From Cannabis sativa (Eukaryota; Streptophyta; Magnoliopsida; Rosales; Cannabaceae), in the NCBI RefSeq assembly GCF_029168945.1, contig NC_083605.1, positions 4,533,280 to 4,597,279 on the forward strand: a stretch of 64,000 bases of DNA, written 5' to 3'. This document shows, in pieces, positions 2,900 through 51,600 of this stretch (positions are counted from its first letter, which is position 1; each line of letters begins with the position of its first letter). A program made the translations under genes and the position numbers. A model generated the notes under the pieces. That model made no database searches. It was not told the origin of the DNA and saw only the letters and a program-made list of their open reading frames with translations.

Positions 2900-3657
2900 T
2901 GTTGACCGAGATTTTCGGCAACCAATTAAATAATAAAATGAGAAGAGTTGTAGAAGCTTTAATGCAGGTGATTTTTACGTGGTTCGGGCATTAATGAGCC
3001 TTAGTCCACGAGTCTTTGTTATTTATGAGAGTATTTATACAGATAATGTTCTTGGTGAATCTCTCTCTCTCTTCTTTACTCCCTTCGATTCTTTAATTAA
3101 TCGATCGACCCCTTTTCCATTCTGCCTTTGGGGTATTTATAGTATTTTTTGGGAGAATCCCTAGAAAGGGATCACTTGCCTTTTTGTGTTAGCCTCTTAG
3201 GGGCACAAATTTCTAACAGATACAAAATAGGAAATACATGACCTATGCCGTAGGTATCTTAGAGATTAGGTGAATATAATCTTTTATCCTTCCTTGATTG
3301 ATGTGAGTCTTCATAACAGAGCTGTCACTAGACTCGTCGATTATCGTGTAATCGCTGTAAGAGAGGCTTACCCCATCTGTCAAATCTTCTTATGGAGGTT
3401 CTGATATGTTTCCCCCCATGCAACATTAAATACGAAGTGAATGTTCGAACAATCTTTTTCCCTCCCGGAGATGCCTTGTTACAACTCCAGCCTCTAGGAG
3501 AGTAAAGGTGTGTCTTATGCTCTCCTCCGGGAAGCTCACTCCGTGAGATGCACTTCACTACCTATGACTTTACTAATTTTTGTGAGTGAATATTCTTTGA
3601 GATCTACGTATCGCATGCAGCCGCTGCCACGTATTTTAGGAAAAATCTGAGACAACA
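2900..3657 (-). repeat. LTR of the - strand gypsy element (758 bp)
   Basis: The boundaries read TGTTGACCGAGATTTTCGG at 2900 and GAGACAACA at 3657, giving TG...CA ends with an imperfect terminal inverted repeat (TGTTG...CAACA). Inside, on the - strand, there are TATAAATA-type boxes near 3040 and 3138. On the - strand this LTR is followed immediately by the primer-binding-like site and the gag ATG, so it is the 5' LTR of an element running leftward. I saw no second copy of the LTR in the window. Confidence 0.7.
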
Positions 3658-5054
3658 TTAATAATTTATATTAAATAATTAAATGATAATTTATAGTGTA
3701 TATTATATACCATATATAATATAATATATATACATTATATACATATACATATATGCCCAAAAATATATGTACTATGTTCGATCAGGTTCGGGTCAAGGGT
3801 CGACCACCATGGCCATGGCGACCACGAAAAAAGGAGCAACTCACACAAAGAACGAGTCAAAGGACTCGAGATCTAGATCGGTCACATGCAGTAGGCGGAG
3901 GAGGGCGAAGGGTCGGACCTTCGGTCTTATTGGCTCACGGTGGCAACAGGAGAGGTCCGAAGACCTCAGAACCCAATAGGTTCCTCCTCCGGTTACAACC
4001 AGAACCAATCCTACAAATCTGAGTGATATTAACCAAGTATATATAAATAAAAATAAAAATAAAAATATAACTTAATGTATATAAATATATGTATGCAGAT
4101 TGTTTGTTATCAACTTGAGTATAACCAAAAGTTGATACATTATGATTGACTCATAATTAATTTATTAATTTGTTGATAATAATAATAATAATTAATATAT
4201 TAATGATCTATAATCATCATGTTTGGATTATGGCATATCAGGTCTATAACTTATCACAATAACATTAATATATACAGAACATATATATGAAATTTTTGTT
4301 TTTTTTTTCTTTATTTATTATAATAGTTATCCTCGTGATAAAAATAAATAGGAAGACCAATAAAAAATAGAATAAAACACAATATATATTTATTTGTAAT
4401 TATCCATTAATCAGGAAAATAAATAAATAAATAGATAAACATTACTTGTAAAATTAAATTCTCAAGGAAGAAAGGTCAACTATAAATTTTGTTTGTACAA
4501 GTGAACTGGTCAACTTTAATTAATTATTATGAAAATAGCAACTTGTCAATAACTTAACTGCCAACGAATATAGTAATTACATATTACCATTTTATAATAA
4601 TTACACAAAATTTACATTTGATAATTAATTCAACAAAGTGACGTGGAAATTGACTTATCATAATTTATTTATTTTATATTAAAACGTATATTAATTTCTA
4701 TAGAAGAAACATATTTGCTACTAGCTAGTTGGGCATTATAAAAAAGAAAATCAATAACATAATTCTTTAAATAACATCTGAAAATCATAACTATAATTAA
4801 TAAGCGTGCACACGTTTCTTTTAATTCTGATTAATAAATTATACATATAATTTATTTTTTATCTTTTTTTTTGTTTGACATGATAATTTATTTTTATCTT
4901 AATTGTTAATAAGTGGACATAATTAGTTGTATTTTTCATTTTTTCTAAATCTTAGAAAATTAAATTAATTTTTAAATACATAAAACGTTGAGCGAAAGGA
5001 GTGTGTGTGGTGCATTTCACAGCTTGATAATTTGATATTAAAGATAAAAGAGCA
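3658..5054. other. A+T-rich intergenic DNA with one GC-rich island
   Basis: No gene found. About 3778-4010 is clearly richer in G+C than its surroundings and carries an open frame of about 90 codons on the + strand with no recognisable motif. The rest is A+T-rich with short AAT runs. Confidence 0.5.
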
Positions 5055-5634
5055 ATTTGCGGCGAAACTCCCTTATGTTTTGATTTTTATACACTTAACC
5101 CCCTTATCTTTATTTTTGGTGGCAAAACCCCCTTATGTTTTAATTTTTATACACTTAACCCCCTTATTTTTTTTTTGTGGCAAAACCCCCTTATGTTTTA
5201 ATTTTTATACACTTAACCCCCTTATCTTTTTTTTGGTGGCAAAACCCCCTTATGTTTATTTTTCTTTGCAAATTTGACACGCCAGTTAAATATTACCGTT
5301 AAATATCAACTGGATGACCACTGTATACACCTTTGTATATGTAACGGTAAAATCTCGAAGTCGATACAGTAGTAATCCAGTTAGTATTTAACGGTAATAT
5401 TTAACTAAAACTTTAAATTTGCAAGGAAAAGTAAACTGAAGGGTTTTGCCACCAAAACAAAAGATAGAGGGGTTAAGTGTATAAAAATTAAAACATAAAG
5501 GGGTTTTGCCACCAAAAAAAAAGATAAGGGGGTTAAGTGTATAAAAATTAAAACATAAAGGGGTTTTGCCACCAAAAATAAAGATAAGGGGGTTAAGTGT
5601 ATAAAAATCAAAACATAAGGGGGTTTCGGCTAAA
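5055..5634. mobile_element. Foldback (long inverted repeat) element with internal tandem repeats
   Basis: The left arm (about 5055-5310) and right arm (about 5370-5634) are near reverse complements, including the inner segment around GTTAAATATTACCGTTAAAT. Each arm contains three head-to-tail copies of a unit of about 58 bp containing CACTTAACCCCCTTAT and GGTGGCAAAACCCCC. The outer end, GAGCAATTTGCGGCGAAACT, resembles the ends of the Mutator-type element at 16889. The open frames on both strands are by-products of the repeat. I could not identify a target-site duplication. Confidence 0.75.
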
Positions 5635-5717
5635 TGATTTTAATATTTATAATTTATATACATATCATTCTAATTAAAAAATTACAGTAAAAATATTTTA
5701 TTTTACGATTTTGTTGC

Positions 5718-5976
5718 CGTTGTTATAAATATTAATAATTATGGGGATGTCCAAATCTTTTATTTATTACCATTAATTGTAATTAACATTCATCTTTTCT
5801 TAGTTTCCTTTTTTTTTTTTTAATTTCTTAATATCTCACTCTTGTATTTGTATAAATAGGGGTTCACCCCATTGGAATAAACAACTCAAAAATTCTCATT
5901 CACTTTCTCTTTCTCTCTTCATCTTCTACTTCTTTCTTCTCATCTACTTTATATTATTTTATATTATTTTATGACA
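5718..5976 (+). repeat. Left LTR-like copy with TATA box and primer-binding-like site
   Basis: From about 5797 to 5974 this matches 9779-9956 closely. It contains a TATA box (TATAAATAGG), an AATAAA-type signal, a CT-rich leader and an end reading TTTTATGACA. Immediately after comes CGTTATCAGCACGAG, which resembles the TATCA-type primer-binding sites of plant Ty1/copia elements (from family knowledge). The left boundary at about 5718 (TGTTATAA...) is a guess; the right-hand copy does not contain the first part. Confidence 0.55.
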
Positions 5977-5999
5977 CGTTATCAGCACGAGTCTCTGCC

Positions 6000-8900
6000 C
6001 AAGCTTCAAGCATGAGTCTCTGCCCAAGTCCCAATGTAAGTATTTTGTTAAAGTTCTTGAATTATTTCAAAGTCACGATACACTAAATATATATTTATAT
6101 ATATACTTATCTGACTGAAACAATTTCAAGAATCCCTTTTCTTTTTATCTATATATCTATATATTATATATGTATGTATATGTTTTTATATATTTACTAT
6201 TGATTTCATATATATATACATATTATATTCTTATCATTCATAATATTTACAATATATGTTTGCCTATGATATTATAGAGAAAATCTATATAAATTATACA
6301 TATATCCTGAAGATTATGTATCCTCGATAAAATATTGCATATATCTTAAAGATTATGCATCATCGATAAAATATTGCATATATCCTGAAGATTGTGCATC
6401 CTCGATAAAATATTGCATATATCCTGATGATTATGCGTCCTCAATAAAATCTTGCATATATCCTGAAGATTATGCAAACGTAATATTCATTATATAGTTG
6501 ATGGATATATAATGAAAGAGATGAATACATATTTATATATATGTTCTTGTATTCTTTGAGGACAATGAAAAGTAATCTAATATCGATATAGATTTTGACA
6601 AACATTTCCTGAAGTAAATGTTTTATATTTGTCAAAAAAAAAATGATTGTATTTATGTAAATACAACTAAAGAATCATTAAAAATGATTATTATTGATGC
6701 AATTTTATAGTGGGTTTTGAATACCTAAACAGAATGTTAAGAAAATTGCATTGAAACATCAAAGTATAAGAATAACAGTGAGCATGACTAATGTTATTTA
6801 AATACATGAGACATGTATTTATTGTTCATCATTCCCTGCAGAGAATGATACGAATTGAATTCAACTACTTTTAAAGATTGTTTGTATTAGTCATGTTACT
6901 ATACATTGTTATTACTTGCAATGTTGGAAATTATTGCATGTGACATATATTAAAGATCAAATTTTGCATACATCTTGGAGATTATGCAAAAATTGTATTC
7001 ATATATTCTTTGAAATATTGTTAAAGAAATTGCTGAGTAATTTCTTTTTATATATGAACAAGTAATAAATTTTTAAGAAATTTATAATAATGTTCTACTT
7101 GTTCAACGTCATTCCCCGAAGTGAATGTAATGATTTTAAACAATCGATGGCATTATTTACTCAAATATTTCCAGAAGAAAGTGGAAACAACCAAAAGATG
7201 AGATACCACACACAATCAAAGTGTATAAAATCTATATATCATGTGTGGAATTGAATAATAGTAGTCGCGTACCTGTAGTACGGACACACTTATAATCAAG
7301 ATAAAAGTATATTTGATTATTGAATAGAATGTGAATTGTACAAATTTATTGTACATTTAGAATATTTAAATATCATTCCCTGAAGAGAATGAATAGACAT
7401 GAAATTCTATTTCAAAGAATATAGATTTCACATATATTGGCAATGCCAGAAGTAAATTTATATATACATATTTTATTATTTCTTGAAATTAATAGTTTCA
7501 AACTATTATTGGTACAGGATATGTATATATATAGTTACTATATAATTCAGTTTGCATATTTCCAGAAGTGAATATATAACTTACTAATATTTGTTAGTGA
7601 TCCAATATAATCAAAGTGATAAAGAATCACAAAATGATTATTTGAAAAGCTTCCTGAAGAAGTCTTACATACAATTGCTACTTTGAGTAGTAAAATATCT
7701 TTGTATGTACCTAGATGTATAACTTTTATCTAGTTATGAAAGTAATAAGAAATAACTTATTATATGTACTTATTATACATTTAAATATATAATATATCAA
7801 GTCATGATAGTTAGACTGATGAATAGTCTATTAATAAATTAGACGACTTGTTAAAAAGATATTAGGAAAAATGAATGGTATATTACGGTTATATCTATTT
7901 GACAATTACAATAACATGATGAAGTTGTCATGTATTTTTCAAATTATACACATCATTGAATTGATGATAGTGATTCCTGAAGAAATATAAAGTTTGATAA
8001 ACATAATAGTGACTCCTGAAGAGTGTATATGTTTTGGAGAATAATATAATTATATTATTCGTGTATATAAAAATGAAACTTGTAATGATTATGTTGTAAT
8101 GAATTTACATTACCTTTTGAAAGTTTCATTGAAATACAAATTATAGTGAACCTGAAGTTCATGAATTGAATTTTTTGACATGATCAATCATATGCAATAA
8201 ATTGTCAAAGAATTTGACTAAATTTTGTTGAAGAACCAGAAGATTCTTCTCATTGTTAATTTATAAGGCTCAAAAGAAGAATGTGCATATATTTGCACAT
8301 AGAAAATATTTAAATTATATTTCTTTAACAGTCTTGAGCTATTATTAGATTTTTATTGCATAGTTTCTTATCGATGTGATAAGATTATATGATCATGTAT
8401 TTACAAAATGTGTAAATTTATGTATTTCTAATTATACATGTATGACTCATTCTTAGAAATGAATTAAGTTCATAATGATTGAACTTGAAACTAAAGTTTA
8501 TTGAACTTGAAGTTCAATGTCATATAGTATATATGAGTTTAAATAAATATTGATTCATTGTGATATACTGAAATCCCTACAGGTATATTAATATTATTAG
8601 ATATCACAATTTTTAAAAATTCTCTCGATCAGGGGGAGAGAAGCAGTTGGGATCGATAATAATTTTTGAAAATGATCCTTGCACAAAGTATATAAGAACA
8701 ATATAGTTCAAAATGATATATACCAACTGCAAATCAATATTATTTAAAGTTGAGATAGAATGAGTTGAAAACGCCTGAAGCGTAAATGAACAATATAGAA
8801 ATTATTAGTAAATGTTCATTTGATTTGCACTGAAATTGTTAAATCTAGAGGTACTCATGAAGATACCTTAATGTTATAAAGTATTGATGATTTAAAAATG

Positions 8901-9775
8901 ATAACCGTGATGAAAACGGTACTCTAGAAGAGACTCCCAAGAGAAGTTAGACATAACACATTTGATCATAATTGAATCCCTGAAGTGATTCTATATAGGT
9001 ACCTATAAATGATAAACATATTTGAAAAATATGTAATTTAAAGAGATCTCTATAAGTTATGTCAATATGGGAGGAAATTATCATATAATGAAATTTTTGT
9101 CGACAATAGATGTTGAATGTTTGCATATGCAATAAACTAACATGAGATAGCAAGGATCATGGTATTAGATTTGTCGAGAATTATCGACATACATTTTGAT
9201 TTTTGGCCAAAATATTATGACGCAGTCCAGGCAAATTTACTCACATAAAGTGAAGTAAGACCTGTAGGGTGTGCAAATAAATATTTCTAATGAGAAATTT
9301 GCATATATGTATTTGTACATAATGAATTGTTGTACAAAGTTTGCATAGACATGAGATTGATTGAAGTAAGGCTTAAATATTAAGAAAATATAATCATGAT
9401 TTGATTATAGCCTGGAATATATTTTATGAGGATTTATAAGCGTCACATAAATGTTGCAATAAAAGGTTATTTATTTGGAGCTCCTAATATAGTGAGAATT
9501 TGAAATAAGTCTTATCTAAAAATTCTAGAAGAATTTAATACATGTCTTAAGTGATATAAATTCAAAGTCGCGCGCACTATATGACAAAGATCTTTGTATG
9601 AAATAAAGACATGTAAGTAAATTATTATTTGAAAAATACCTATGGTTGTCTATGCAATATAAATTCGTAAATTATACGTTGTGATAGGCTCTTGAAGAGT
9701 TTTTGATTAATTGAAGAACAAACTTTTATTTCTTTTGTATTTCGAGAAATATTAATGTATAAAGTTTGTTCATTA
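6000..9775. repeat. Dense array of short hairpins and palindromes
   Basis: This interval has no open frame of note but is packed with perfect short inverted repeats. Examples: 6296-6321, 6593-6637 (10 bp outer plus 7 bp inner stem), 6800-6820 (9 bp stem, 3 nt loop), 6828-6849, 6962-6991, 7065-7085, 7337-7355, 7373-7392, 7812-7830, 8039-8060 (22 bp perfect palindrome), 8147-8161, 8230-8249, 8281-8300, 8466-8486, 8501-8517, 8620-8642, 8728-8829 (9 bp outer stem enclosing 8771-8783 and 8784-8821), 8974-8991, 8994-9007, 9121-9132, 9201-9212, 9312-9338, 9584-9597 and 9716-9771. About twenty loops carry CCTGAAG or a close variant. The flanking LTR-like copies suggest a non-autonomous LTR retroelement. 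I know of no described family with this interior. Confidence 0.75.
6296..6482. repeat. 39-bp tandem repeat, five copies
   Basis: The core ATCCTGAAGATTATGC recurs with exact 39-bp spacing (TCCTGA-type cores at 6305, 6344, 6383, 6422 and 6461), with linker CCTCGATAAAATATTGCATA. Each unit folds into a hairpin GCATA...TATGC around the CTGAA loop. It lies at the start of the hairpin array. Confidence 0.85.
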
Positions 9776-9777
9776 GT

Positions 9778-9958
9778 TTGTTCTTAGTTTCCCTTTTTCT
9801 TAGTTTCTTAATATCTCACTCTTGTATTTGTATAAATAGGGATTCACCCCATTGGAATAAACAACTCAAAAATTCTCATTCACTTTCTCTTTCTCTCTTC
9901 ATCTTCTACTTCTTTTTTCTCATCTACTTTATATTATTTTATATTATTTTATAACAGC
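9778..9958 (+). repeat. Right LTR-like copy
   Basis: Nearly identical to 5797-5974 from CTTAGTTTCC through the TATA box to an end reading TTTTATAACA. No purine tract precedes it, and the part upstream of the TATA box differs from the left copy, so this copy may be truncated or its 5' half replaced by the array. Confidence 0.6.
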
Positions 9959-10379
9959 CGTTATATTTTTTTAATAGTTAAGTGTTAATTAAGTTCTTTA
10001 AGTGTCAGTTAAAAAACACATATATATTTTTTTTAATTTATTTAATATGAAATTGTAAAATAATATATTTTTAGTGTCATTTATTATTAAAATTATATGT
10101 GTAATAATTATAAATATTAAAAAAAAATTATTACAAATATTTTAAAAATAAATAAAATAATAATTGTTATTTATTATAAATAATAAATTAAAAGGATGAA
10201 AGTGAGAGGCGAAAGCGATCGTGGAGGTTTTAAAAAAAAGGTTGTTTGGCCTCGAAAAGGAGACAGTGTTGTAATTTTCTCGACCCCATTTGGAGGGAAT
10301 AGCTAAGAAAGCTGTGATCTTTTCAACTTGACAAACTAAAAAGACTATTATTAATATTAATTATTATTATTATTATTAT
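9959..10379. other. A+T-rich upstream region of the CBL gene
   Basis: No gene seen. A+T-rich with a short (TTA)n run at about 10345-10380. It would include the proximal promoter of the CBL gene. Confidence 0.4.
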
Positions 10380-13573: not shown

Positions 13574-13973
13574 GGATAATTAGGATTTTTGATCCTTAAA
13601 TTTTGACATGTATTAAATTATGTTCTTTGGATTTTTCTGGCCCCTTAAATTTTTTTCCAGAATTATTGAGATTGTTGGATTTAAGGATTTTTATCAAATT
13701 TTATTTAATTTTACTAATTCGGTGGATTCTCAATGTATTAAATTATGCTTCTTAGACTTTGATACCCACCAAATTATGTCCCTTAAACTTTGACACGTAT
13801 TAAATCATGTCCTTCAAACTTTGATTTATATTAGACTTTTCTTACTAAAATTAGATAAAAATCCTTAAATCAAATAATTTCAATAATTCATTAGAAATTT
13901 TTAACTGCCTTAAAAATTCAAGAGCATGATTTGATACATGTCAAAGTTTAGAGGACAAAAATCTTAATTAACC
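13574..13973. mobile_element. Mutator-type MITE with 9-bp target duplication
   Basis: Terminal inverted repeats start GGATAATTAGGATTTTTG on the left; the right end is the reverse complement of GGTTAATTAAGATTTTTG. Homology continues about 45 bp through TTTGACATGTAT. A perfect 9-bp direct repeat TTATAATAA flanks it (13565-13573 and 13974-13982). Length 400 bp, no coding capacity. It lies just beyond the CBL 3' UTR. Confidence 0.85.
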
Positions 13974-13974
13974 T

Positions 13975-13975
<1 letters not shown>

Positions 13976-14022
<47 letters not shown>
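13976..14022. repeat. (AAT)n microsatellite
   Basis: About 15 uninterrupted AAT units, beginning inside the right target duplication of the neighbouring MITE. Confidence 0.95.
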
Positions 14023-14649: not shown

Positions 14650-16888
14650 AATAAAGTTTTTTTAATATATTAAAATCGAATCGAATTAGATCCGATTCGG
14701 AAAAAAATTAAGCGAGATAGAGCGGATCTAATCATCCAATAAGTATCCGAATATTTTGGGTCATAAGTGATCTGTCAGATCGGAACTCTGACCTATTCCA
14801 ACTAAATGGATCTTTTTGACATCCCTAACCAAAACAATAAAAATACCTATTACATTCAAAATCACCAAAATCCTTTCATTCACTCTTCTCACAGATCATC
14901 GCTCACTTTCTAAATTCAAAAACATTAAATAACATCACATTGAGTTTATTTAGGTATTTTATGAACTCATTTATCATTTTTTACTCTCGTTTTCTTTGAG
15001 TTGTGTTATAAACATAACAACCTCAGTTTGAATCAATCAAGCCTTAATTACAAAACCAAAAATTAAAATAAGATAATGCAATGAAAGGAAATTAAGAATA
15101 GAAAAGTAAGCAACAAGCAAATTTAAAGGGGTTCGAACGTTCCTCTACAATTTGTAGAAAGCCTATTCTCTTTGAATTCCTTCCAAAGAATCCTCCTTTT
15201 ACTATGATAATGTCAAATTACAAATTTTGGTTTAAGATAACTTAAATTGTTACAATGATGATCTTCTCCTTTGAGCAACATCCAATTAAAGCTTGAACAC
15301 TTAGAAAACTTCCTTGAAGATCTCTTCTTCCCTTTGATTTCTCAATTTTGTTCATCTATCTTCATCTTTAACATTCTTGCTACAAGTTACAATTAAATCT
15401 CGCCATACATTAATAGTTCTCTCAGTTCTCTCTCTAATTATTTTCTATTATTTTACAATTAATGAATAAAGGCTTCCGTTTCTAATAAAATTAACAACTT
15501 ATTGCTAACCGAATTAACTAACTCTAAAATATCTAACCCGAATTGTCTTGAAACATGCCATGTCATCAAAGTCGTTAATTGTTTGGTTTATTTAGGTTTG
15601 ATATAACAAGTTTTAGTTTGGATTTGTTAGAGTTAGTTAAAAATGTTTGTTAATACTGGTTTAGTGAGTTAATCGTTGTTGTTTCTGTTGTATTTTATTG
15701 TTTAGTTGTTCTCTTAACAGCCTTTTTGTAAGTATTAGCTAATTCTCATTAGGTTGCTTACTAGTTAAGATTATGTTTAATAGAGGTGTAAACATTGTAT
15801 TATATTTGACTTAAAAAATAATTTTATGATATATTTATATTAATTTATAGCATTGTGCTCCAATGCACAAATACAAACTTGATGAAAAATTTAATAATTT
15901 TCTTAAGAGCATAAAAAAAAAAATTCTATCATTAATTTTATTATTATTTTATCGTATAAACAATAAAAAATGTAAAAAAATTATAATTTAATCCAATAAT
16001 TGAATTTAATAATGAAATATAAAAATAAAATAAAAGTAAATAGTGCATTTATTGTGATGTAAATTTTACATAATATCATATTATGATCTAAATTTAGATC
16101 AATTTTTATTATGTAATAAATTTAGATCGACTTTTAACTCACTATTTGAGCAAATTTTTTATAAAATAAACTATATTTTAGTAATAGATCACCAATTTAC
16201 ATTTATATTAAAGATGTTCTTAGTACTCTATAATACTTTAACAATTCTTCACTACACCAATAATAAAATGAAAATTTTGTTAAATGTGCTATCTTAAAAG
16301 GATTCAATGTTATTATTTTTTTTTTTTTGGAACTGGTTAAATGTGCAAGATACTTAAAATGAAAATTTTGTTATTTAGTGAGATTATTAAGTCAATGTTT
16401 GACTACGTTCTTATACTTTTTTCAAAGAATTTGTGAAGTACAAAGTTGTAAATCTCTTTATTTTGTTAACATTTTAAATTGTCTCATTTATTGAAGATGA
16501 TCAAAACAAAAAGAAAAACATATTAAGCCTGTCTATGGTGATACACCTATTCTTTACTTTGTTGGCAATGCAGTCCTCTTGTGTCACTTACATAAGAAAA
16601 ATCCTCTTTTCACATATTCTTCTCCCAAATTGAAAGTAATACTTTGACTTAGAATGCATTTAAGGGCTAAGGAACAACCAAAACACCTATAAAATAAGTA
16701 AATATATTTAGAGAGCTAATTTTAAGAGTTTTCAACATTCTTCAATCATCTTTTCCTCGTTCTTTTTATTATTTGGTATGGTTATGACGGTTAAACATTC
16801 TCAATTATTATTTTATTTGCACTTAATTTTTTAAATTTAAATTTTGAAAATAAAATCCTCTAAACTACTAAATTATTAGCAAATTTAA
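14650..16888. other. Intergenic DNA, no gene seen
   Basis: A+T-rich, with no coding region or clear element boundary. The stretch around 15100-15600 has less biased composition and may be old LTR debris, but no ends could be found. Confidence 0.4.
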
Positions 16889-17221
16889 GAGTAAATGGCG
16901 GTAAAACTCCAAAAATTTTCATTTTGATTTCACTTAACTCCCAAAACTCAAATTTGAGCGGTAAAACCCACAATACTCGTATTCTTTTAGCAATTTAACA
17001 TTTCCGTCCATTTTAGGTGTTAAGTGCCATGTTGGATTGAACACAGTGTACACGTGGCACAATTTTATTGGTCCACGTAAAAAATTATTTAAAAAAATTA
17101 AAAAATTAAAATAAAATTAATTTAAAATTAAAAAAAAATTATAAATAATAAATAATTTCTTTTTTTTTTCTTTCTTTTTTTCCTTTATTTTTTTTTTCTT
17201 TTCTTTCTTTTTCTTCTGCAG

Positions 17222-17261
<40 letters not shown>

Positions 17262-18181
17262 CCATTTTGTGCAACAACCAAAAAACTCAAAGCTTTCTCT
17301 CTCTAAAACCTCCCCAAAACCATGGCTTCCAATCCAAAACCCCACCAAGCTTTGATCTTTCTCCTTCAACTCTTCTTCTTCTTAGTCTCTACAACCACCG
17401 GTACCTCATCTTCTTCTTCACCTCCGGCACCGACTGTCTTCGACATCCTCCGGCCTTGACGAACCCAGAACTTGCTCCTTTCTCGGTTCACACAACCCAA
17501 AAAACTCACATCTCAAACTCAAGAACACAAGAACACGAACCCAGAAATTTCTAGCTCACAAAACAAAACCCAGAAAATTTCTTGCAAACTCTCGGGCAAA
17601 CTTACCACACCAAACTGGCAGTAGCTCCAAGCTCGTTCTTCTGCGCCGCCCACCCGAATGGCTGCCTAGCTGATGAAATCCCAGCTCCATACTTGTCGGG
17701 CGTGCGAAGAGGCAATCACTGGATCTGCAACTCTGGTTTTGACCTTACTCGGAGTCTTATCAACCTTACTCCGACCACTGCCCATTTCTTGTTCTTGCGT
17801 TAGGTTTAGGTTAGGATTTTTTTTAGGGAAGAAGAAGAAGAAGAAGAAAGAGAAGGAGGGGGTTAGGGAATGGAATTGGGAAATAGGTTTTTTTTTTTTT
17901 TAATTTTTATTTTTAAAGAAAAATAATTTTTTTATTTTATATTTTTAAAATAATTAATTTTTTAATTTTTTTAAATAATTTTACGTGGACTAATAAAATT
18001 GTGCCACGTGTATATTATGTCTACGTGGACAATCCAACCTGGCAGTTAACAGCTAAATTTGGACGGAAGTGTTAAATTGCTAACAGAATACGAGTATTGG
18101 GGGTTTTACCGCCCAAATTTGGGTTTTGGGGGTTAAGTGAAACCAAAATGAAAGTTTTGGGAATTTTGCCGCCATTTACCC
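16889..18181. mobile_element. Mutator-like element (possible Pack-MULE), 9-bp target duplication
   Basis: Left end GAGTAAATGGCGGTAAAACT, right end the reverse complement of GGGTAAATGGCGGCAAAATT; the inverted repeat continues about 150 bp through the segments with AATACGAGTATT and TTAGCAATTTAACA. The perfect 9-bp direct repeat CAAATTTAA flanks it (16880-16888 and 18182-18190). No transposase is present. The interior (about 17160-17900) is richer in G+C, has a (CT)17 run at 17225-17259, and carries an ATG-initiated frame described separately. Confidence 0.85.
17322..17459 (+). pseudogene. Captured gene fragment: signal peptide plus DUF538-like start
   Basis: A 45-codon frame with ATG in good context (ACCATGGCT) encodes a hydrophobic leader (ALIFLLQLFFFLVSTTTG) followed by a Ser/Pro-rich linker and PTVFDILRP, then a stop. 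Many plant DUF538 (At5g01610-like) secreted proteins begin with a signal peptide followed by PTVY(D/E)(I/V)L and then a GLPxGLLP stretch, which is missing here. It sits inside a Mutator-like element, so I infer a captured, truncated gene 5' end preceded by CT-rich leader DNA. The family match is by short motif only. Confidence 0.4.
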
Positions 18182-18190
18182 CAAATTTAA

Positions 18191-39800: not shown

Positions 39801-41014
39801 GAGATTAGTCAAGTCAAATACAAGTTCAATATGTAACGAAAACAATTTATAATAATAATAAAAAAGAATGCACACTATTATATTTATGGGGAACAATAAA
39901 AGATTAATCAGTGAGAGTAAAATATATGTCATTATATAATATATATACTTGAGACATTTAAATTCAGTTAAAAGTATAAGATTAAAGAAAACAAACATCA
40001 GAATCTTAAATATCAGTTCAAATATTAATGAGATTGGTTTTATTATTATTTTATTATATATAAATAATATTTTATTAAATAAAAATAAAAAGTCACCCAT
40101 AAATTTCTCATAAACCAAGAATTTTAGTTATATAGGCACACTTTATATAGAATAGATTTAAACTTTAATTTTACGATAACATTTTGTTTTAAAAATAACT
40201 AATGCTATATATATACATACTTCTAATAATTTGTACATTTTATTATAACCGTACACCCTCCTAACTACAAATTAAGAATATTGTATCTATCACTATTATT
40301 ATTTTTTATAATATATATATTTGGACATAATATATTTCGTCAAAATATTTTCTAATATAATTCTTATATATAGAGAAAAATTAATATAAAATACGTATGA
40401 TAATGAAATTTACATAATTTTTTATTTTACATATATAAAATATATATATATAATCACATCTAATGAGTACACTAATGTAACCGCAATAGCTAAAAAAAAT
40501 TTAAAGATCAAAATCTCAAATCCTATTTCAAAAATTTAAAAATAAAAATATCTTACCTAATGAAAAAATTGAACATGCATGTATTGCATTTAACATCACT
40601 TAATTAAACTTATTAAAAAAAACTAATTATACGTGCATTGTACGTAACATCAACCTAGTTTATTTATATACTAGGTTATTGTTACATACATTGCACATAT
40701 ACTTAATTATATTTATAGTTTTTATTTTTATTATGTGTATTTTTAAAATTTTATAAATTAAAGGAAACTACTTATTAATTTTTTATTTTTTTAAAAAATA
40801 ATATTTAAATTTTTAAAAATTAATATAAAGTTTAAAAATATTAAAATTGAACATACTTCAATATTAAAAATCACAATAAAAAAATAATAATGTTATAAAT
40901 AATATATTACTATTTATATATATTTAAATTAATCTAAAACTGATATAGGTTCAATTAACCTAAAATAAATAATATTAATATTTATATATATTTAAATTTA
41001 TCTAAAATATTTGA
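36867..41014. other. Very A+T-rich intergenic DNA with dispersed short repeats
   Basis: No gene supported. A unit containing CCAAGAATTCTGTTATATAG and CACATTTTATATA occurs near 38437, 38519, 38790 and 40100 (+) and 32290 (-). Two Helitron-like ends face each other at 40631-40711. A hydrophobic open frame at 39759-40118 (-) is a composition artefact. Confidence 0.5.
40631..40711. mobile_element. Two facing Helitron-like 3' ends
   Basis: On the + strand ACGTGCATTGTACGT (hairpin with one mismatch) is followed by 9 nt and CTAG|T at 40655-40658. On the - strand GTGCAATGTATGTAAC leads to CTAG|T at 40674-40671. The ends are 12 bp apart and the two arms are imperfect reverse complements. The hairpin of the - strand end is weak. 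Confidence 0.3.
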
Positions 41015-42628: not shown

Positions 42629-45600
42629 ATGTTTAGTAATATGATGATTCAATTTCTCAGAAGAAGCCATACTCTTTCATCATCAAATTTTAAGGTTTAT
42701 ATATTTCTCTTCTTCTTCTTCAAATTTCCATTTTTTCAAAAATTGATTAAAAATCAAACAATTCATATTTATTTTTTTAATTTTTTGACATGAAGTTGGG
42801 ACGATTTGGATTTGCATCTCGAGCTGCATCTTTGCCTCAACAAACATATGGGTAAGATTAATTATATTACCAGATTTTATTATTTTTTTCCAGAAAAAAA
42901 AATCATGAATAATTAATAATGGTAGAATTGGGGTGTGGGTAATGATTATTATCTTGTAATTAAGCTGTAAAATTGATATAATTATTATTATATATTAAAT
43001 TTGGTGACGTAATAAATGGGAGAGCAGAAATGTAGGGGGTGATGTGGATGAATATGCTGACGTGGAATGGGATAAAATTGGATTTGGTGCAATTCCAACT
43101 GATTACATGTACGTTATGAAGTGTTGTAAAGACCATGATTTTGAACATGGACAACTTAATCCCTATGCAAATATCCAGATTAGCCCTGCTGCTGGCGTTT
43201 TAAACTACGGTCAGGTAATTAATTAGTATTTTCTTAAATTATAAATTTAATGTATGAGTTTTATCTTTGAATAGTTGGTACTAGAAAAAAAATATAATTC
43301 TAGTACGTTAAAATGGGTGTACTGATGCAACCCCTAACTGTTTCGGTATCTATAAGAATTTTTTAGTTTAAATTTTTTTATTTTTATAGTCGTGTATCTT
43401 ATAGTTGTTTAAGACATCCTGCAAAATTTTAAGAAATTTGAAAAAATTTAACACGTCGAAAATAGTGTTTAAAGAGTTTGTTGTACGTGTAATTTTTTTA
43501 TTTTATACGCGTGTGAAATAGACGGTTTAAATATTGATTTTTATATTGTAAATTATTCTGAATTTTTCAAAATTTTACAAGAAGTCTTAAATAACTATAA
43601 CGTACACGATTATGAAAAAATTTAAACTAAAAGATTTATATAGATACAGAAGTAATTAGAGATTGCATCAGTGTATCGTAAAAGTAGCCTATGATTTATC
43701 TTTGAATAGTTTTTTTTTTTTTTTTTTTTGAAATGATTTATCTTTGAATAGTTGGTACTAGAAAAAAATGTAATTTCTATAATTATTAATTAATTTATTA
43801 AACACGTCAACCTCAATAAGTTGAAAATTCGTAGGTAGAATGATGTCAAAGTCAACACAAGACATCTATCTATCCTTTTCCTTTTTTCCACGTGGCCTTA
43901 TCATGTTACAGCACATAGTCAAAGTGAAAATGTTGAGTTACTATAAAGAGAACCATTTTATAGATTTTCCTTTTTGTCTTTTTTGGGTAGTGCGTTCACT
44001 CTTTTTTTTTTTATTATTATTTTTAAAAAGAATTATTAGTGTATTTTTAAGTCTTATATAATTTTAAAAAATATTATTTATTTGAAATATTATTATAGAA
44101 TATGTTAAACATATATATCCAATAAGAATACTCATTTCAAAATACATTCTTCTAATCAGTAATTTTATAAAAATTAATGCATCACGTTATATAAAAAATT
44201 TAGCATTTCTTATTAAATTATTATACATAGCTCGCTATTATTTTTTTTCACTAAATGTTACATAAGAACATTTAACACGTGGTTGTGCAATATATATATT
44301 TTAATATAAAAGATGTTTTCTTTTATTATTGGTTAGTTAATATATTATTGGGTAAGTTTAGAAAATCTATTATATCTTTTGGCACTTTTGAGAATTTTTT
44401 AATATATTATGTTATAATTATTATTTATAAATTTTTAGAATACCAATATTTTACATATTTTATTGTACATATTATTTTTTATATATAGTAATGAACTATT
44501 TAAATTTTATTTTATATATTGTAAATTATTCAAAAAAAAAAAAAAAATTTACAAATAGTATTAAAAATAGACTAAAAAGTTTAAAAACATAATAAGTAAA
44601 AAGAAGGGTTAATTTCACAAATGCACGGAAACAACAAAAAAATAACAAAAATACGGTTTCACGGAATTTTAAATATTTTTACGATTTTTTTGATTTTATT
44701 TACATAAAATACGGTCTTTTTATGTTGAAATTTTGTTCATTTGTGGTTAATTTTTTGTTATATGTATGTTATTTTTTGTTGTTTTTTGTTGTTATTTTCA
44801 TGTTAGTTATGTTGTTTTCTTGTTTATTTTATGTTGTTTTCGTGTTATTTTTTGGAAAACCGTAAAAATGTAAAAAAATATTCTTTGAACGTAAAAATAT
44901 AAATATTTTACAAAAAATTGTACCTCATGTAATTATTCCTAAAAAGAATGATGATGTTAAGAATTTTGAAAGTAATATATAATTAATAAAAGAAGAGAGA
45001 ATTAATTATACACGTACAGGGAGTGTATGAAGGAACAAAAGCTCAAAGAAGGTCAGATGGAAGAGTCCTTCTATTCCGTCCAGACCAAAATGCCATTCGC
45101 ATGAGGGAAGGTGCACACAGACTCTGTATGCCCGCACCTTCCACCAATCAATTTCTCCATGCACTCAAACAAACTGTTCTTGCCAACAAACGTTGGGTAC
45201 GTACGACTACTATTAATTAATTATTACACATAATTATATATGTTGTTAAAATATATTATTATTATTAATTAATTCTCATCATCAAAATGTATAGATTCCT
45301 CCTCCTGGAAAAGGGTCTTTATATATTAGGCCTATGCTAATTGGAAGTGGTCCTATATTGGGCTTGGCTCCATCACCAGAATACACTTTCCTCATTTATG
45401 CTTCCCCTGTTCGCAACTATTTCAAGGTCACTATTACATTTTTCAGAATGTGAATTAAGTCTTTTTTTTGCTTAAAATATATATATTAATATACATCATT
45501 TTATTGTGATTTAAAAGGAGGGAATTGCAGCTTTGAACTTGTATGTTGAAGAAGAGTATGATCGAGCCTCTCCTGGTGGAGCTGGAGGTGTAAAAAGTAT

Positions 45601-48600
45601 TACCAATTATGCCCCAGTAAGATTTTTCTTTTACTTTATTACTTATCTGTTGGAAATATTGTGAATATTTTAACAAAATATATAAGTGTCTTAGTGTGTG
45701 TGAGTTGGAAAGAGTCCCACATGGGATATGAACCCTCATTGACAAGGGTATAAAGAGTGCAACTTTGGCATTTGGGTTTGGGCCCCAAGGGGTACCCAGT
45801 TTTGTGCGAATGGGTGAGGACACACACACTTGACCCACCACACACGCGCGCGCGCGCCGTCCGTCCGATCCGAGCCGGGTTGGGTTGGTTGGTGTGGTGT
45901 GACACAATATTATTTTTTACAGAAAAATTATTTAATAAAATATTTATTTTTTTATTTATTAATTTAATTAAGAAACGTGTTTAATTAAACTGATTACTTA
46001 GTCGTATCAGTTAATGGGACACGTTCAAAGGACCAACTCACCCCACTTCAGAAAACGTTATTCTTCCCGTTATGTTTATTCAATCCATTCGCCTATATAA
46101 TGCGATTGAACTGATGGGAAGAAAACATCTCTTTTTCGTATCAGAAAAATACAGTTTTTCATAAAATTAAAATTCCATCTGCGATATCAAATTTTTTGGG
46201 TGTATTCGACGGTGCTCTACAGTGCAGTGGGGTTCCGATACAGTGCAACGATCGGGCCGTTTTATCCTGGGGACGACCGGCAATTTCCGACTGCTTGCAC
46301 ACTCCTGGGCAGTGCCGCGAACGTCTTAAAGAGAGCGACTTAGTCCGCGACTCAACCCAGAATTCTTCATTCGGTAATATCGTTCCTCTTTTATTTTGCT
46401 AGCAGTTTACTCAACAATTTTAAGACGTTCTTTCTGCTATGACTACTACCGATGAATGTTCTGGTTCTACTGCTGATATTAACAAGCCTTTTCGTTTTGA
46501 GGGTTTGCACTTTAAACGTTGGAGACAGAAGATGTTGTTTTTTCTGACCATGAAAAAAGTTGCGTATGTGCTTACTGTTTTGAAACCGATTGTTTCGAGA
46601 CTCCACCTCCGCCGAGAAGAAGGATGAAGTCGAGAAGTACGAATCGCGAGGTTAAGGAAAGGGACTCCTGGGTAGAGAATGATTTTCTGTGTAAAGAATT
46701 TTATTTGAATGGGTTTGTCTGATGATTTGTATGATTATTATAATTCTGACAAATCTGCCAAGGAGATATGGGAAGCATTACAGAAAAATATGACACCGAG
46801 GAGGCGGAACAAAGAAATACGCTGTCAGCCGCTACTTGAAGTTTCAAATGACCGATGATAAATCAGTCGAAGCTCAGTCTCACGAGCTTCAGAAAATAGC
46901 TCACGAAATTCTTTCTGAAGGTATGACTATTGATGAACAATTTCAAGTTGCTGTTATGATTGATAAATTACCCCCTTCGTGGAAAGATTTTAAAAATACT
47001 CTCAGGCATAAAACAAAAGAGTTTTCGTTGGAAAGTCTGATCACTCGTCTTCGAATTGAGGAGGAAGCTCGAAAACAAGACCAAAAGGAAGAGGTGCTTG
47101 TTGTTGGAAACAACAACAACACTAATAAAAGATCCACTGCTGTTCTGAAACCCAATGGGAAAAACTTTAAGAATCAGAATCGCAAAGCGAATCCAAACCG
47201 CAACAATCAACCTCGAACCAATAACAACAATCAGAATTGGAACCATCAAAGGAACCATAATAACAGGCAGCAACCACCCCCTAATAGAAATGACTCTGGT
47301 TTGTTCATGTGTTACAACTGTAACAAGCCAGGTCATATGGCACGAAAGTGTAAGAACAGGCCTAGTTCGCTCCGCAGCTAACTCGACGTAAGAGCTGCCT
47401 TTTACAGCTATGATTTCAGAGATCAACCTTATTGGTGGATCTGAAGGGTGGTGGGTAGATACTGGCGCTTCTCGCCATGTCTGCTATGATAGAAATATGT
47501 TTAAAACATATGTTGCTGCTACTGAGGATCAGAAAGTGTTGTTGGGTGACTCCCACACCACTATAGTTGCTGGTACTGGAAATGTGGAATTGAACTTCAC
47601 CTCTGGAAGAACTGTGATTCTAAAAGATGTGATGCACACTCCAGAGATGAGGAAGAATTTGGTCTCGGGCTACCTTCTCAACAAGGCGGGGTTCACTCAG
47701 ACTATAGGAGCTGATTTGTTTACTTTAACTAAGAATGGGATATTTGTGGGGAAGGGGTATGCAACTGAGGGAATGTTTAAATTGAATGTTCAAGTCAATA
47801 AAGTTAATGCTTCTGCTTATATGTTGTGTTCTTTTAATACTTGGCATGCTAGACTTTGTCACGTAAATAAACGCATAATCAAGAACATGAGTAGTTTAGG
47901 CCTAATTCCTAAATTATCTTTAAATGACTTTGAAAAATGCGAATTTTGTAGCCAAGCCAAGATTACTAAAACACCACATAAATCTGTGTTAGAAAAAGAA
48001 ACCGAGCCTCTAGATTTAATCCATTCTGATATTTGTGAACTTGATGGAACTTTGACTAGAAATGGTAAACGCTACTTTATCACTTTTATTGATGATTGTT
48101 CTGACTTTACCTATGTGTATTTAATGAAAAATAAAAGTGAAGCTCTTGATATGTTTAAGATTTTTGTGGCTGAAATTGAAAATCAACTTAGTAGAAAAAT
48201 CAAGAAGTTTCGTAGCGATAGAGGCACTGAATATGATTCTACTGCTTTTATTGAATTTTATAACTCACATGGAATCATACACGATAAGACTGCACCTTAT
48301 TCACCTGAAATGAATGGCAAAGCTGAAAGAAAAAATAGAACTCTTACTGAATCTGTTGTTGCTATTTTATTGAATTCGGTGTCGCTTCTCATTGGTGGGG
48401 AGAAATTTTATTAACTGTATGTTATGTGCTTAATAGAGTTCCTAAATCTAAAAGGAAAATTTCTCCATATGAAAGTTTGAAAAATAAACAACCCAATATC
48501 TCATATTTTAAAACTTGGGGTTGTTTGGCATATGTTAGAATTCCTGATCCTAAGAGAATTAAATTGGCTAGTAGAGCATATGAATGTGTTTTTATTGGAT

Positions 48601-51600
48601 ATGCTGTTAATAGTAAAGCATATAGATTTTATGATTTAAAAGCGCATACTATTTTGGAATCTAATGATGCTGATTTTTTCGAACATAGATTTCCATTTAA
48701 ATTGAGAAATAGTGGGGGTGCATCATCTAGTAACATGACTGCTTTTAGGGATAATGAGCATGAAAAGGGTATAGAAACTGAACCTAGAAGAAGTAAAAGA
48801 GCTAGAATTACCAAAGATTTTGGTTCTGATTTTTGTGCATATACTCTAGAGGAGGATCCTTCTAACCTCCAAGAAGCCTTGACTTCACTAGATGCTGATT
48901 TATGGAATGAAGCTATTAATGATGAAATGGACTCTCTTGAGTCAAATGGAACTTGGCATTTAGTTGTGTTACCACCGAGTTGTAAGACAATAGGTTGTAA
49001 GTGGATTCTGAAAAAGAAATTAAGACCCGATGGTACTGTTGAAAAGTACAAGGCACGACTTGTTGCCAAAGGGTTTAGACAAAGAGAAAATGTAGATTTC
49101 TTTGATACATTTTCACCTGTTACTAGAATTACATCTATTCGTGTGCTTTTTGCTCTTGCTGCTATTCATAATCTTGTTGTGCACCAAATGGATGTTAAAA
49201 CTGCTTTCTTGAATGGTGAATTAGAAGAAGAGATTTACATGGACCAACCTGAAGGTTTTGTTGTTCCTGGTCAAGAACATAAAGTGTGTAAATTAGATAA
49301 ATCTTTGTATGGTTTGAAACAGGCACCTAAGCAATGGCATGAAAAATTTGATAATCTTGTCATCTCACATGGCTTTAAAGTAAATGAAAGTGACAAATGC
49401 ATTTACTATAAATCTGAAAATAATGTGTGTACCATTATTTGTTTATATGTGGATGACTTGCTAATTTTTGGATCTAATATTCATGTCGTGAACAATGTGA
49501 AATCTTTGCTATGTGAAAATTTTGACATGAAAGATCTAGGTGAAGCGAATGTAATCCTTGGTATACGTATCACTAGATCGAAAAGGGAATTTCTTCGGAT
49601 CAATCTCACTACATTGAGAAGATCTTAAAGAAAGATAATTACTTTAATCAGAACCCGCATGTACACCATATGATCCCAAAGTGTAAAATTATTTAAGAAC
49701 ACCGGTGATGGTGTAAGGCAATCTGAATATGCGAGCATCATTGGCAGTCTTCGATATGCCACTGATTGTACTAGACCTGACATTGCCTATGTCGTGGGAT
49801 TATTATGCAAGTTTACTAGTAGACCTAGTCCAGAGCATTGGAATGCTATAGAGAGGGTCATGAGATACCTCAAAAGAATATTGACTCTTGGATTACATTA
49901 TCAAAAGTTTCCAGCTGTACTTGAGGGGTACAGTGATGCTGACTGGAACACTTTATCAGATGACTCCAAGGCAACCAGTGGCTATATTTTTAGCATAGCT
50001 GGTGGAGCTGTTTCATGGAAATCTAAGAAACAGACTATTCTGGCTCAATCTACAATGGAGTCTGAAATGATAGCGCTAGCTGCTGCTAGTGAAGAAGCAG
50101 GTTGGCTGAGAAGCCTGCTAGCTGAGATTCCTTTATGGGAAAAACCTATTCCAGCTGTGTTGATCCATTGCGATAGTACCGCGGCTATTGCAAAAGTACA
50201 GAACCGTTACTACAACGGTAAGAGACGACAAATACGTCGTAAGCACAGCACTGTTAGAGAGTTTCTCTCAACAGGAGCTGTTAGAGTGGATCATGTACGC
50301 ACTGATGATAACTTGGCTGATCCTTTGACGAAAGGCTTAGCTAGAGAGAAAGTCCTTAAAACATCGAAAGGAATGGGACTGTTGCCCTTAGATTGATGAA
50401 TCACTCATAATGGCAACCCGACCTATAGACTGGAGATCCCAAGAAATAGGTTCAATGGGTAATAACAAGTTATGAAGTGATAAAAGTGAGATCATGCTAT
50501 AATTATACGAAAAGAGAAGCATGAATTCCTGAAGCGATTTAAGGTTGAGTTAATAGAAACTCTTAATGAGATCTATACTCCAAGTGGAGTGGAGTACCGA
50601 GCTACGGGAGTACTCTTGATAGACTCACCTATGTGAATGTGGGAGTGGGGCCGCTTCCTATGAAATTTTGGGCAAAATTTCTAGAGCGTTCACTATACTG
50701 GGATAGACGTGCATGGCCATTAACGCACGGGCTTTTGATTACACCCTTGAAAAGGTTGTTGCGTGGTACAATGTTAGAGATAGAGTTCAAGACTACGGTC
50801 ACTCTAGTAAAATCTAAATCGTATTCACTACGCAGAGGTTCAAATCGAAAGATACCTTTGTTTATGCTCAATCTTATTGTTGAATGATACTAGTAGATGG
50901 AAATATTTTTTAAAAAATTCAAGTGGGGGATTGTTGGAAATATTGTGAATATTTTAACAAAATATATAAGTGTCTTAGTGTGTGTGAGTTGGAAAGAGTC
51001 CCACATGGGATATGAACCCTCATTGACAAGGGTATAAAGAGTGCAACTTTGGCATTTGGGTTTGGGCCCCAAGGGGTACCCAGTTTTGTGCGAATGGGTG
51101 AGGACACACACACTTGACCCACCACACACGCGCGCGCGCGCCGTCCGTCCGATCCGAGCCGGGCCGGGCCGGGCCGGGTTGGGTTGGTGTGGTGTGACAC
51201 AATATTATTTTTTACAGAAAAATTATTTAATAAAATATTTATTTTTTATTTATTAATTTAATTAAGAAACGTGTTTAATTAAACTGATTACTTAGTCGTA
51301 TCAGTTAATGGGACACGTTCAAAGGACCAACTCACCCCACTTCAGAAAACGTTATTCTTCCCGTTATGTTTATTCAATCCATTCGCCTATATAATGCGAT
51401 TGAACTGATGGGAAGAAAATATCTCTTTTTCGTATCAGAAAAATACAGTTTTTCATAAAATTAAAATTCCATCTGCGATATCAAATTTTTTGGGTGTATT
51501 CGACGGTGCTCTACAGTGCAGTGGGGTTCCGATACAGTGCAACGACTGGGCTGTTTTATCCTGGGGACGACCGGCAATTTCCGACTGCTTGCACACTCCT

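What the first reader, a model, noticed from the sequence alone, without database searches (positions are those of the whole stretch)
6000..9775. A 3.7-kb chain of short hairpins and palindromes between two LTR-like copies
Seen: more than 25 perfect stems of 5-11 bp with short loops, plus exact palindromes (for example 22 bp at 8039-8060, 14 bp at 8994-9007, 14 bp at 9584-9597, 12 bp at 9201-9212), often end to end, some nested (6593-6637; 8728-8829). Rough estimate: at about 70% A+T two random bases pair about 28% of the time, so stems of 7 bp or more with loops up to 12 nt should occur only about four times here. The arms differ in sequence from hairpin to hairpin, so this is not one repeat copied many times. 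I know no retroelement interior, gene or non-coding RNA with this build. Possible origins (inference): repeated snap-back synthesis by reverse transcriptase, or selection for a highly structured RNA.
Basis: partly seen in the sequence, partly recalled or inferred. Interest (0 to 1): 0.9.

Follow-up and report, generated by a model that had tools for sequence, protein, structure and literature searches.

The report
Hairpin-chain interior of a jumping element
A family of plant jumping elements has lost its protein genes, and what remains has become a long chain of hairpins whose paired stems appear to be preserved while the element is still copying itself, so the structure itself may be what the element needs.

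Summary
The hairpin excess is real: 30 non-overlapping perfect stems of at least 7 bp in 6000-9775, against 6.9 ± 2.2 in shuffles. The chain is the interior of a non-autonomous Copia-type LTR family; 27 other places in the same 770-Mb plant genome match the whole stretch at 93-99%. Complete copies are about 5.4 kb; the window copy has lost its 3' end.

A relative with open gag and pol frames shares LTR, PBS and leader. The chain is a collinear but strongly diverged derivative of that relative's gag-pol. Hairpin excess is strongest where divergence is high and absent from the last 1.1 kb of a complete copy.

Variants shared by at least 4 copies hit stems at 0.26 of the expected rate (0.10-0.42 over 34 reference copies); rare variants hit them at 0.93. 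Mirror repeats, the control, give about 1. So stem letters are maintained while the element replicates and hardly after insertion.

Selection for a structured genomic RNA is the best reading; homogenisation by reverse-transcriptase template switching is the main rival. A loop shared by 14 sites (CCWGAAGW-like) is striking but is not itself conserved among copies.

The parts
5716..5720 (.). 5' copy of the target-site duplication GCCGT
   Evidence: exact 5-bp match to 9957-9961, flanking TG...CA ends
5721..5976 (+). 5' LTR (TG...CA), with a TATAAATA box at about 5851-5858
   Evidence: boundary by TSD, TG/CA and by the LTRs of other copies; TATA box read by eye
5977..5991 (+). primer-binding site CGTTATCAGCACGAG directly after the LTR
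   Evidence: core CGTTATCAGCACGA also found at L056 637 in the coding relative; which tRNA it pairs with was not tested
5992..6290 (+). leader shared with the coding relative, without hairpin excess
   Evidence: LTR plus leader align at 74-89% per 100 nt; 1 stem vs 1.2 expected in 6040-6290
6291..6485 (+). 39-nt tandem repeats, several with the CCTGAAG loop; repeat number varies between copies
6486..9775 (+). hairpin chain: collinear, strongly diverged derivative of Copia gag-pol without long open frames
6608..8986 (+). 14 sites outside the 39-nt block with the loop CC[T/A]GAAG or a one-letter variant (6608, 6835, 7115, 7171, 7379, 7446, 7562, 7653, 7976, 8015, 8151, 8236, 8774, 8979); 9 of the 14 have at least 4 of 6 flanking positions paired
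   Evidence: 61 of 84 positions paired vs 43.6 with arms swapped
8630..9611 (+). decayed reverse-transcriptase part of pol, aligned to L057 97-1100
   Evidence: local alignment score 101 vs 29.1 ± 3.3 in 20 shuffles
9776..9780 (.). approximate junction of a deletion in this copy (end of RT, RNase H, PPT and first part of the 3' LTR missing)
   Evidence: L002-L008 continue for about 1.1 kb to PPT and 3' LTR; none of the 38 other fetched copies has a 3' LTR within 600 bp of this point
9781..9956 (+). 3' LTR lacking about its first 76 bp
9957..9961 (.). 3' copy of the target-site duplication GCCGT

Best explanation
The window holds a 3'-deleted copy of a non-autonomous Copia-type LTR retrotransposon family. 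Shown: its LTR, PBS and leader closely resemble those of a Copia relative with open gag and pol frames in the same genome. Its interior descends from the relative's gag-pol, no longer has long open frames, and has become a chain of perfect short hairpins. Variants that spread in the family avoid the stems, whereas variants confined to one or two copies hardly do. Inferred: the element is moved in trans by Gag and Pol of such relatives, and its full-length + strand RNA is the selected object. The stems fold the AU-rich, untranslated RNA into a compact string of stem-loops that is stable and fits or recruits Gag particles. Copies whose stems are broken are packaged or reverse-transcribed less and leave fewer descendants. 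After insertion the DNA drifts freely.
For: Hairpin excess. A replicating family: 27 other whole-query matches at 93-99%; the two LTRs are identical over 240 letters in L003 and L004 and differ at 1, 2, 5 and 9 sites in L006, L008, L005 and L007; exact TSDs at predicted ends in 3 of 8 loci, window included, or 5 of 8 when the 3' LTR ends printed are read by eye, the other 3 with one mismatch. Coding relatives: 64 places scored of 20101 candidates, 9 of them with frames over 1000 codons and no stop in the match; same PBS core; LTR and leader at 74-89% and the last 400 nt or so up to the 3' LTR at 80-95%. Collinear descent: gag z 5.3, first pol part 4.4, RT 21.8, RNase H 67.5; two off-register controls 0.8 and 1.2. 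No hairpin excess in the last 1.1 kb of L003 (1 vs 1.0). Stem constraint: base-adjusted shared variants in stems 7 vs 21.6, none of 3100 shifted masks as low; 0.26 on average over 34 reference copies; 0.36, 0.26 and 0.23 for stems >=5, 6 and 7; rare variants 0.94, 0.93, 0.84; mirror repeats 1.15 and 0.93.
Against: No strand signature of RNA was found. G.U-keeping and A.C-making transitions in stems are 58:45 among rare variants against 190:212 elsewhere, p 0.12, and by my count 5 to 5 among the shared stem variants listed. The minus strand folds about as anomalously as the plus strand. Compensatory changes are few: 6 Watson-Crick of 10 double changes at predicted pairs, 23 of 97 at slid pairs. 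Copies differ from the window by at most about 4% in substitutions (L058 7.5% with gaps), so covariation is hardly testable. Rare variants are also slightly low in stems (0.84 for stems >=7). Sites homologous to H hairpins in the coding relative are not hairpin-like (n 32, p 0.54). The coding relative and an unrelated Copia show a modest stem excess too. No transcript, particle or small-RNA data were available.
Confidence: 0.55

Rival explanations
1. Mutational origin and upkeep: during each reverse transcription the polymerase switches template inside imperfect hairpins and copies one arm from the other. Stems are thereby perfected and stem variants erased without any benefit to the element.
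For: Template switching can create and maintain hairpins (PMC8794818, abstract and part of the introduction seen). It predicts equal behaviour of both strands, as seen, and acts only while replicating, as seen.
Against: If erased variants were copied to the other arm half of the time, about as many double changes as missing variants (about 14) would be expected in stems. The one clear double difference in a stem, T-A in the window at 7490/7508 against C-G in 34 of 41 copies, has its single-letter intermediate C.A in the other 7, so it need not be a one-step copy. No inverted-copy insertion was recognised in the list from 41 copies (by eye), and 12 insertions relative to L056/L057 are not inverted copies of their flanks (3.92 vs 4.04). 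The last 1.1 kb of the element, replicated the same way, has no excess.
Confidence: 0.27
2. Loop-recognised packaging signals: hairpins with the loop CCWGAAGW bind Gag of the coding relative, like the dispersed coat-protein sites of some RNA viruses.
For: 14 sites outside the 39-nt block share the loop while their differing flanks pair: 61 of 84 positions vs 43.6 ± 3.6 when arms are swapped among them, 0 of 20000 as high (one search gave 58 of 78 for 13 sites after its filter had dropped 7171). CCTGAAG occurs 11 times on + and its complement CTTCAGG 0 times in 6290-9610, 0.05 expected for CCTGAAG from base composition. At several homologous sites the relative has a hairpin too (n 12, p 0.049, tested after I had looked).
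Against: Only 9 of the 14 sites have at least 4 of 6 positions paired. The motif letters are not conserved among copies: 7 shared variants vs 7.1 expected, 45 rare vs 44.6 (which used a slightly wider motif list). Proline-glutamate codons can explain some of the motif in the coding ancestor (inference; the relative has CCTGAAG 3 times).
Confidence: 0.17
3. The chain is a substrate or decoy for Dicer-like enzymes and small-RNA loading, so that hairpins protect the transcript or make regulatory small RNAs.
For: Many perfect short stems in an element with its own LTR promoter; inference only.
Against: Stems of 5-11 bp are too short for Dicer (established knowledge, not tested). No Rfam match at gathering score in the window or at E<=1 in 5700-9990. 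No expression data.
Confidence: 0.06
4. Ordinary decay: an A+T-rich dead pol gene with chance hairpins.
For: The interior is a decayed gag-pol. A modest stem excess is also seen in coding Copia sequence.
Against: Excess over dinucleotide shuffles; no such excess in the decayed 3' part of L003; stem-specific loss of shared variants with mirror-repeat control.
Confidence: 0.03

Closest known systems
LARD elements (large retrotransposon derivatives, e.g. Sukkula)
   Same: Non-coding LTR elements with a sizeable interior, assumed to depend on autonomous elements; described as specifying well-conserved RNA secondary structures (PMC7215508, passages seen; the original 2004 paper is not held)
   Different: LARDs are recalled as having LTRs of several kb and no recognisable gag-pol; here LTRs are about 256 bp, the interior is traceable to Copia gag-pol, and the structure is a dense chain of short perfect hairpins with measured stem constraint
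Ty1/Copia retrotransposons (coding relative L056/L057; Arachis Copia-like polyprotein P0121)
   Same: LTR, PBS, leader and remnants of RT and RNase H
   Different: Open gag and pol frames and only a modest hairpin excess there
Retrozymes
   Same: Non-autonomous plant LTR elements without coding capacity whose RNA structure matters (PMC4918200, abstract seen)
   Different: By that abstract retrozymes have LTRs of about 350 bp with hammerhead ribozymes around 600-1000 bp, and Ty3-gypsy-type domains; no hammerhead was found here
TRIMs, including Cassandra, Helenus and Ajax
   Same: Non-autonomous LTR elements; 5-bp TSDs in plant members (PMC7215508 passages, PMC10886601 abstract)
   Different: TRIMs lack internal domains almost entirely, and Cassandra-type elements carry small-RNA-like sequences in the LTR; the first does not hold here, and no small-RNA match was found
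Dispersed packaging signals of small RNA viruses (satellite tobacco necrosis virus)
   Same: Stem-loops with a recognised loop motif (PMC3593212, search listing and start of abstract only; the rest recalled)
   Different: No protein binding is shown here and the loop letters are not conserved among copies
Template-switch-made hairpins (Monttinen and Loytynoja 2022)
   Same: A mechanism that makes and repairs perfect stems (PMC8794818, abstract and part of the introduction)
   Different: There in DNA replication of RNA genes; here no direct footprint was found

Membership tests
Ty1/Copia LTR retrotransposon (non-autonomous derivative) | LTR with TG...CA ends and 5-bp TSD | tested here: met
   window GCCGT/GCCGT; exact at predicted ends in 3 of 8 loci, window included; 5 of 8 exact and 3 with one mismatch when the ends printed are read by eye
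Ty1/Copia LTR retrotransposon (non-autonomous derivative) | PBS after the 5' LTR and PPT before the 3' LTR | tested here: met
   PBS shared with the coding relative; CCAAGGGGGAG before the 3' LTR in 5 of 7 loci L002-L008, single-letter variants in 2; absent from the window copy by deletion
Ty1/Copia LTR retrotransposon (non-autonomous derivative) | pol homology of Copia type | tested here: met
   RNase H remnant of L003 matches Copia-like polyprotein P0121, E 1.5e-14 in the database search and 1.2e-19 in a single-sequence comparison; RT part by DNA alignment to L057. Pfam scans of window pieces gave no Copia hit, and searches with or against another Copia gave none either
LARD | non-coding multi-kb interior | tested here: met
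   longest open stretch in 5800-9960 is 77 aa, stop to stop
LARD | LTRs of several kb, no recognisable gag-pol (recalled) | tested here: not met
   LTR about 256 bp; interior traceable to gag-pol
LARD | conserved RNA secondary structure | tested here: inconclusive
   stem sites conserved among copies; covariation across distant relatives could not be tested
Retrozyme | hammerhead ribozyme in the LTR | tested here: not met
   no Rfam match in 5700-9990 at E<=1
TRIM | interior almost absent | tested here: not met
   L002-L008 are about 5.36-5.42 kb
Dispersed packaging signals | binding of the loop by a capsid/Gag protein | not testable with these tools
   needs a binding assay

The most novel reading that the evidence does not exclude
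A satellite-like RNA parasite of a plant Copia element has rewritten its helper's gag-pol into an array of dozens of stem-loops that works only as RNA structure. These are packaging or compaction signals read by the helper's Gag, many with one shared loop. It would be a retrotransposon counterpart of the multi-site packaging signals of RNA viruses, an LTR element whose only 'gene' is a hairpin array.
Probability: 0.25. Interest if true: 0.88.

Novelty: new variant of a known kind. Interest (0 to 1): 0.72.

Why it matters
How non-autonomous LTR elements win access to another element's particles is, to my knowledge, largely open. This family shows a coding interior turned into a hairpin array whose stems are conserved mainly while the element replicates. 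The conservation comes with an internal control, because shared and rare variants are counted in the same copies. That makes the question testable: break or restore stems and measure packaging and mobilisation. It also gives a natural test of whether reverse transcriptase can build and maintain hairpins without selection.

Tried and rejected
Coding potential: no open stretch over 77 aa in 5800-9960. Pfam on five ORFs and on read-through pieces gave no Copia hit; the only sub-threshold names (a poxvirus domain and two others, E 0.006-0.44) fall on the ORF over the 39-nt repeats and were disregarded. A PDB sequence search gave only E>=0.6 matches. A first protein search with the RT remnant found nothing at E<=1 among 217 candidates. 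A profile of 38 database Copia proteins and the window's other Copia did not beat shuffles (-4.2 vs up to 0.5, 40 shuffles), and tblastn with that other Copia gave only noise. The RNase H remnant of copy L003 then gave the Copia link.

Hairpins inherited from the coding ancestor: rejected as a general account (n 32, p 0.54). For the loop-motif subset p was 0.049 with n 12, chosen after looking.

Snap-back insertions: not found. Ribozyme or known RNA: no Rfam match. Transition asymmetry on whole folded structures pointed in opposite directions for the two strands' folds, is confounded by G.U pairs in the fold, and was not used. Viral contigs: no match to a PBS-region 23-mer. Literature: the PBS core as a text term, 0 papers; four word searches for hairpin-rich or structured LTR interiors (one search listed 12 of 76 papers) and one for Copia packaging signals (0 papers) listed no description of this build by title or abstract start. 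They cover only openly licensed PMC papers.

Corrected on re-reading: LTR differences were overcounted, because the query took in PBS letters beyond the LTR; one search recounts them over the first 240 letters (L002 aligned badly there, 206 letters with 3 differences, and is not used). The motif count had dropped site 7171 through its filter; one search counts all 14.

Rows dropped: 8 of the 41 fetched copies with under 3000 nt (34 references remain, window included); sites where the reference copy does not carry the commonest letter; the 39-nt block; letters inserted relative to the window in all variant counts.
Full report
OBSERVATION. In 6000-9775 there are 30 non-overlapping perfect stems of at least 7 bp with loops of 3-12 nt; 60 dinucleotide shuffles give 6.9 ± 2.2, at most 14. 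Among the 32 overlapping stretches of the same length across the window, the highest count not overlapping the element is 20, in a stretch of 21% GC where shuffles already give 11.1. Folding of 400-nt pieces with 12 shuffles each gives negative z on both strands for all nine pieces of 6001-9600, from -0.9 to -9.5. The excess starts near 6290, not 6000: 14 vs 2.9 in 6290-7700, 9 vs 2.0 in 7700-8630, 4 vs 1.1 in 8630-9610, but 1 vs 1.2 in 6040-6290 (100 shuffles each).

WHAT IT IS. The window lies in a 770.7-Mb plant assembly without a name (that it is a plant is inferred from its genes and retrotransposons). The interior is repeated: 43 matches were listed after scoring 39 of 1527 candidates, 27 places other than the window covering the whole query at 93-99% identity. 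Complete copies L002-L008 are about 5.36-5.42 kb with two LTRs of about 255 bp and CCAAGGGGGAG (single-letter variants in two of seven) directly before the 3' LTR. Their two LTRs are identical over the first 240 letters in L003 and L004, and differ at 1 (L006), 2 (L008), 5 (L005) and 9 (L007) sites, so the hairpin-bearing form itself has been copied recently. Exact TSDs at the predicted ends are found in 3 of 8 loci, the window's GCCGT among them; read by eye at the ends printed, 5 of 8 are exact and 3 have one mismatch. The window copy lacks the last 1.1 kb and about the first 76 bp of the 3' LTR; complete copies continue into a decayed RNase H. That remnant matches a Copia-like polyprotein of Arachis (P0121, E 1.5e-14; 55% over 82 residues).

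THE RELATIVE. P0121 finds 64 scored places of 20101 candidates in the same genome; 9 of the 64 have frames over 1000 codons with no stop in the match. One of these, read as L056 and L057, has an LTR at 87% to that of the hairpin family (196-nt match), the same PBS core, a related leader, a gag frame of 368 codons and a pol frame. That it is autonomous is inferred from its frames. Per 100 nt, identity in LTR and leader is 74-89%, in the RT part 61-81%, and 80-95% in the last 400 nt or so up to the 3' LTR. Gag, the first pol part, RT and RNase H each align to the matching part of the hairpin element better than to 20 shuffles (z 5.3, 4.4, 21.8, 67.5), while gag against the RT part and pol against the gag part do not (0.8, 1.2). 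So the chain is a collinear, strongly diverged descendant of gag-pol, and the cis-acting ends are much less diverged than the interior. Hairpins are in clear excess only in the strongly diverged part. The relative's coding pieces show a weaker excess (4 vs 1.1, 1 vs 1.5, 5 vs 2.0 for stems >=7), as does the unrelated Copia at 46794-50396 (7 vs 2.8), so part of the signal is common to such genes.

ARE THE STEMS KEPT? 38 copies and later three more were laid on the window coordinates. Variants were split into shared ones (in at least 4 copies, so mostly inherited from replicating ancestors) and rare ones (1 or 2 copies, so mostly mutations after insertion). With base composition allowed for, in 6490-9610 shared variants in stems of at least 6 bp number 7 against 21.6 expected; none of 3100 shifted copies of the mask is as low. 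Loops outside the motif have 12 vs 9.3, motif letters 7 vs 7.1, the rest 95 vs 83.0. Rare variants in stems are 115 vs 127.8 (0.07 of shifted masks as low). Using each of 34 copies in turn as the one in which stems are defined gives 0.26 (0.10-0.42) for shared and 0.93 (0.88-0.99) for rare variants. The effect grows with stem length (0.36, 0.26, 0.23; rare 0.94, 0.93, 0.84), and mirror repeats, which cannot pair, give 1.15 and 0.93. The 34 values are not independent, since they use the same variants. The finding is that letters in stems change less in the replicating line, and that mirror repeats do not show it.

SELECTION OR REPAIR BY COPYING. Both predict the above. Repair by copying one arm from the other should also spread about half of the changes to both arms. 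About 14 single variants are missing, but the only clear double difference seen in a stem is at 7490/7508: T-A in the window, C-G in 34 of 41 copies, and the single-letter intermediate C.A in 7. No recognisable inverted-copy insertion exists in the list from the copies (by eye) or among 12 insertions relative to the relative. Against RNA selection, there is no clear preference for changes that keep G.U pairs on the + strand (58:45 vs 190:212, p 0.12; 5 against 5 by my count), and double changes at folded pairs are too few to judge (6 of 10 against 23 of 97). I therefore hold selection on the RNA at about 0.55 and template switching at about 0.27.

THE SHARED LOOP. CCTGAAG occurs 11 times in 6290-9610 on the + strand (0.05 expected from base composition) and its complement never. 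Outside the 39-nt block 14 sites with this loop or a one-letter variant have flanks of differing sequence that pair far better than when arms are swapped among them (61 of 84 vs 43.6 ± 3.6, 0 of 20000 as high), though only 9 of the 14 have at least 4 of 6 positions paired. This is what a family of protein-binding stem-loops would look like, but the motif letters are free to vary among copies, so either the loop marks a common origin or binding tolerates change. Some motif hairpins coincide with hairpins in the relative, e.g. window 7110-7127 with L056 1580-1597, and 8147-8161 with L056 2653 onwards; the subset test is weak (p 0.049), and hairpins in general do not coincide (p 0.54).

MECHANISM COMMITTED TO. 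Shown: a repeated, recently copied, non-coding Copia derivative with helper-like ends; stem letters conserved in the replicating line. Inferred: mobilisation in trans by relatives; selection acts on the packaged + strand RNA; stems serve compaction, stability or many weak Gag contacts. Not shown: transcription, packaging, and which strand or molecule is selected.

WHAT IS KNOWN. Non-coding LTR elements with conserved RNA structure have been described as LARDs (passages of PMC7215508). Retrozymes (abstract) and TRIMs (abstract) fail defining features here. I did not find a Copia-derived interior made of short perfect hairpins with measured stem constraint in the searches named in Tried and rejected.

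Noticed in passing
window 5056-5626: Large imperfect inverted repeat built of about 60-nt units (CCCCTTATGTTTTAATTTTTATACACTTAAC...), just upstream of the LTR; among the strongest local folds of the window (z about -11 and -15 at 5201-5600). A weakly similar pair of inverted arms lies at 16882-17010 and 18060-18188.
   Followed up: no
window 6291-6485: 39-nt tandem repeat whose number varies between copies of the family; most length variation listed lies in the leader and this block, little in the hairpin chain.
   Followed up: partly
window 5721-9611 versus L056/L057: The interior differs from the coding relative far more than the LTR does (LTR 87%, RT part 61-81%, gag and first pol part barely alignable), although nothing codes there; either the ends are exchanged with helpers or the interior evolved fast.
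   Followed up: partly
L003 about 5695-5873: Two copies of a direct repeat of about 79 nt (89% alike, about 100 nt apart) between the RT and RNase H remnants.
   Followed up: no
G000:C1:26140646-26147000: Two members of the family lie head to head, one matching the whole query on the minus strand and a fragment on the plus strand beside it.
   Followed up: no
window 3601-4000, 13601-14000, 40401-40800, 43201-43600, 53201-53600: Other 400-nt stretches with strongly negative fold z on both strands, possibly small inverted-repeat elements.
   Followed up: no
window 46794-50396: A separate Copia element in several open pieces; its piece 48351-49625 is 71-88% identical to proteins named from Trifolium and Glycine soja.
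   Followed up: partly
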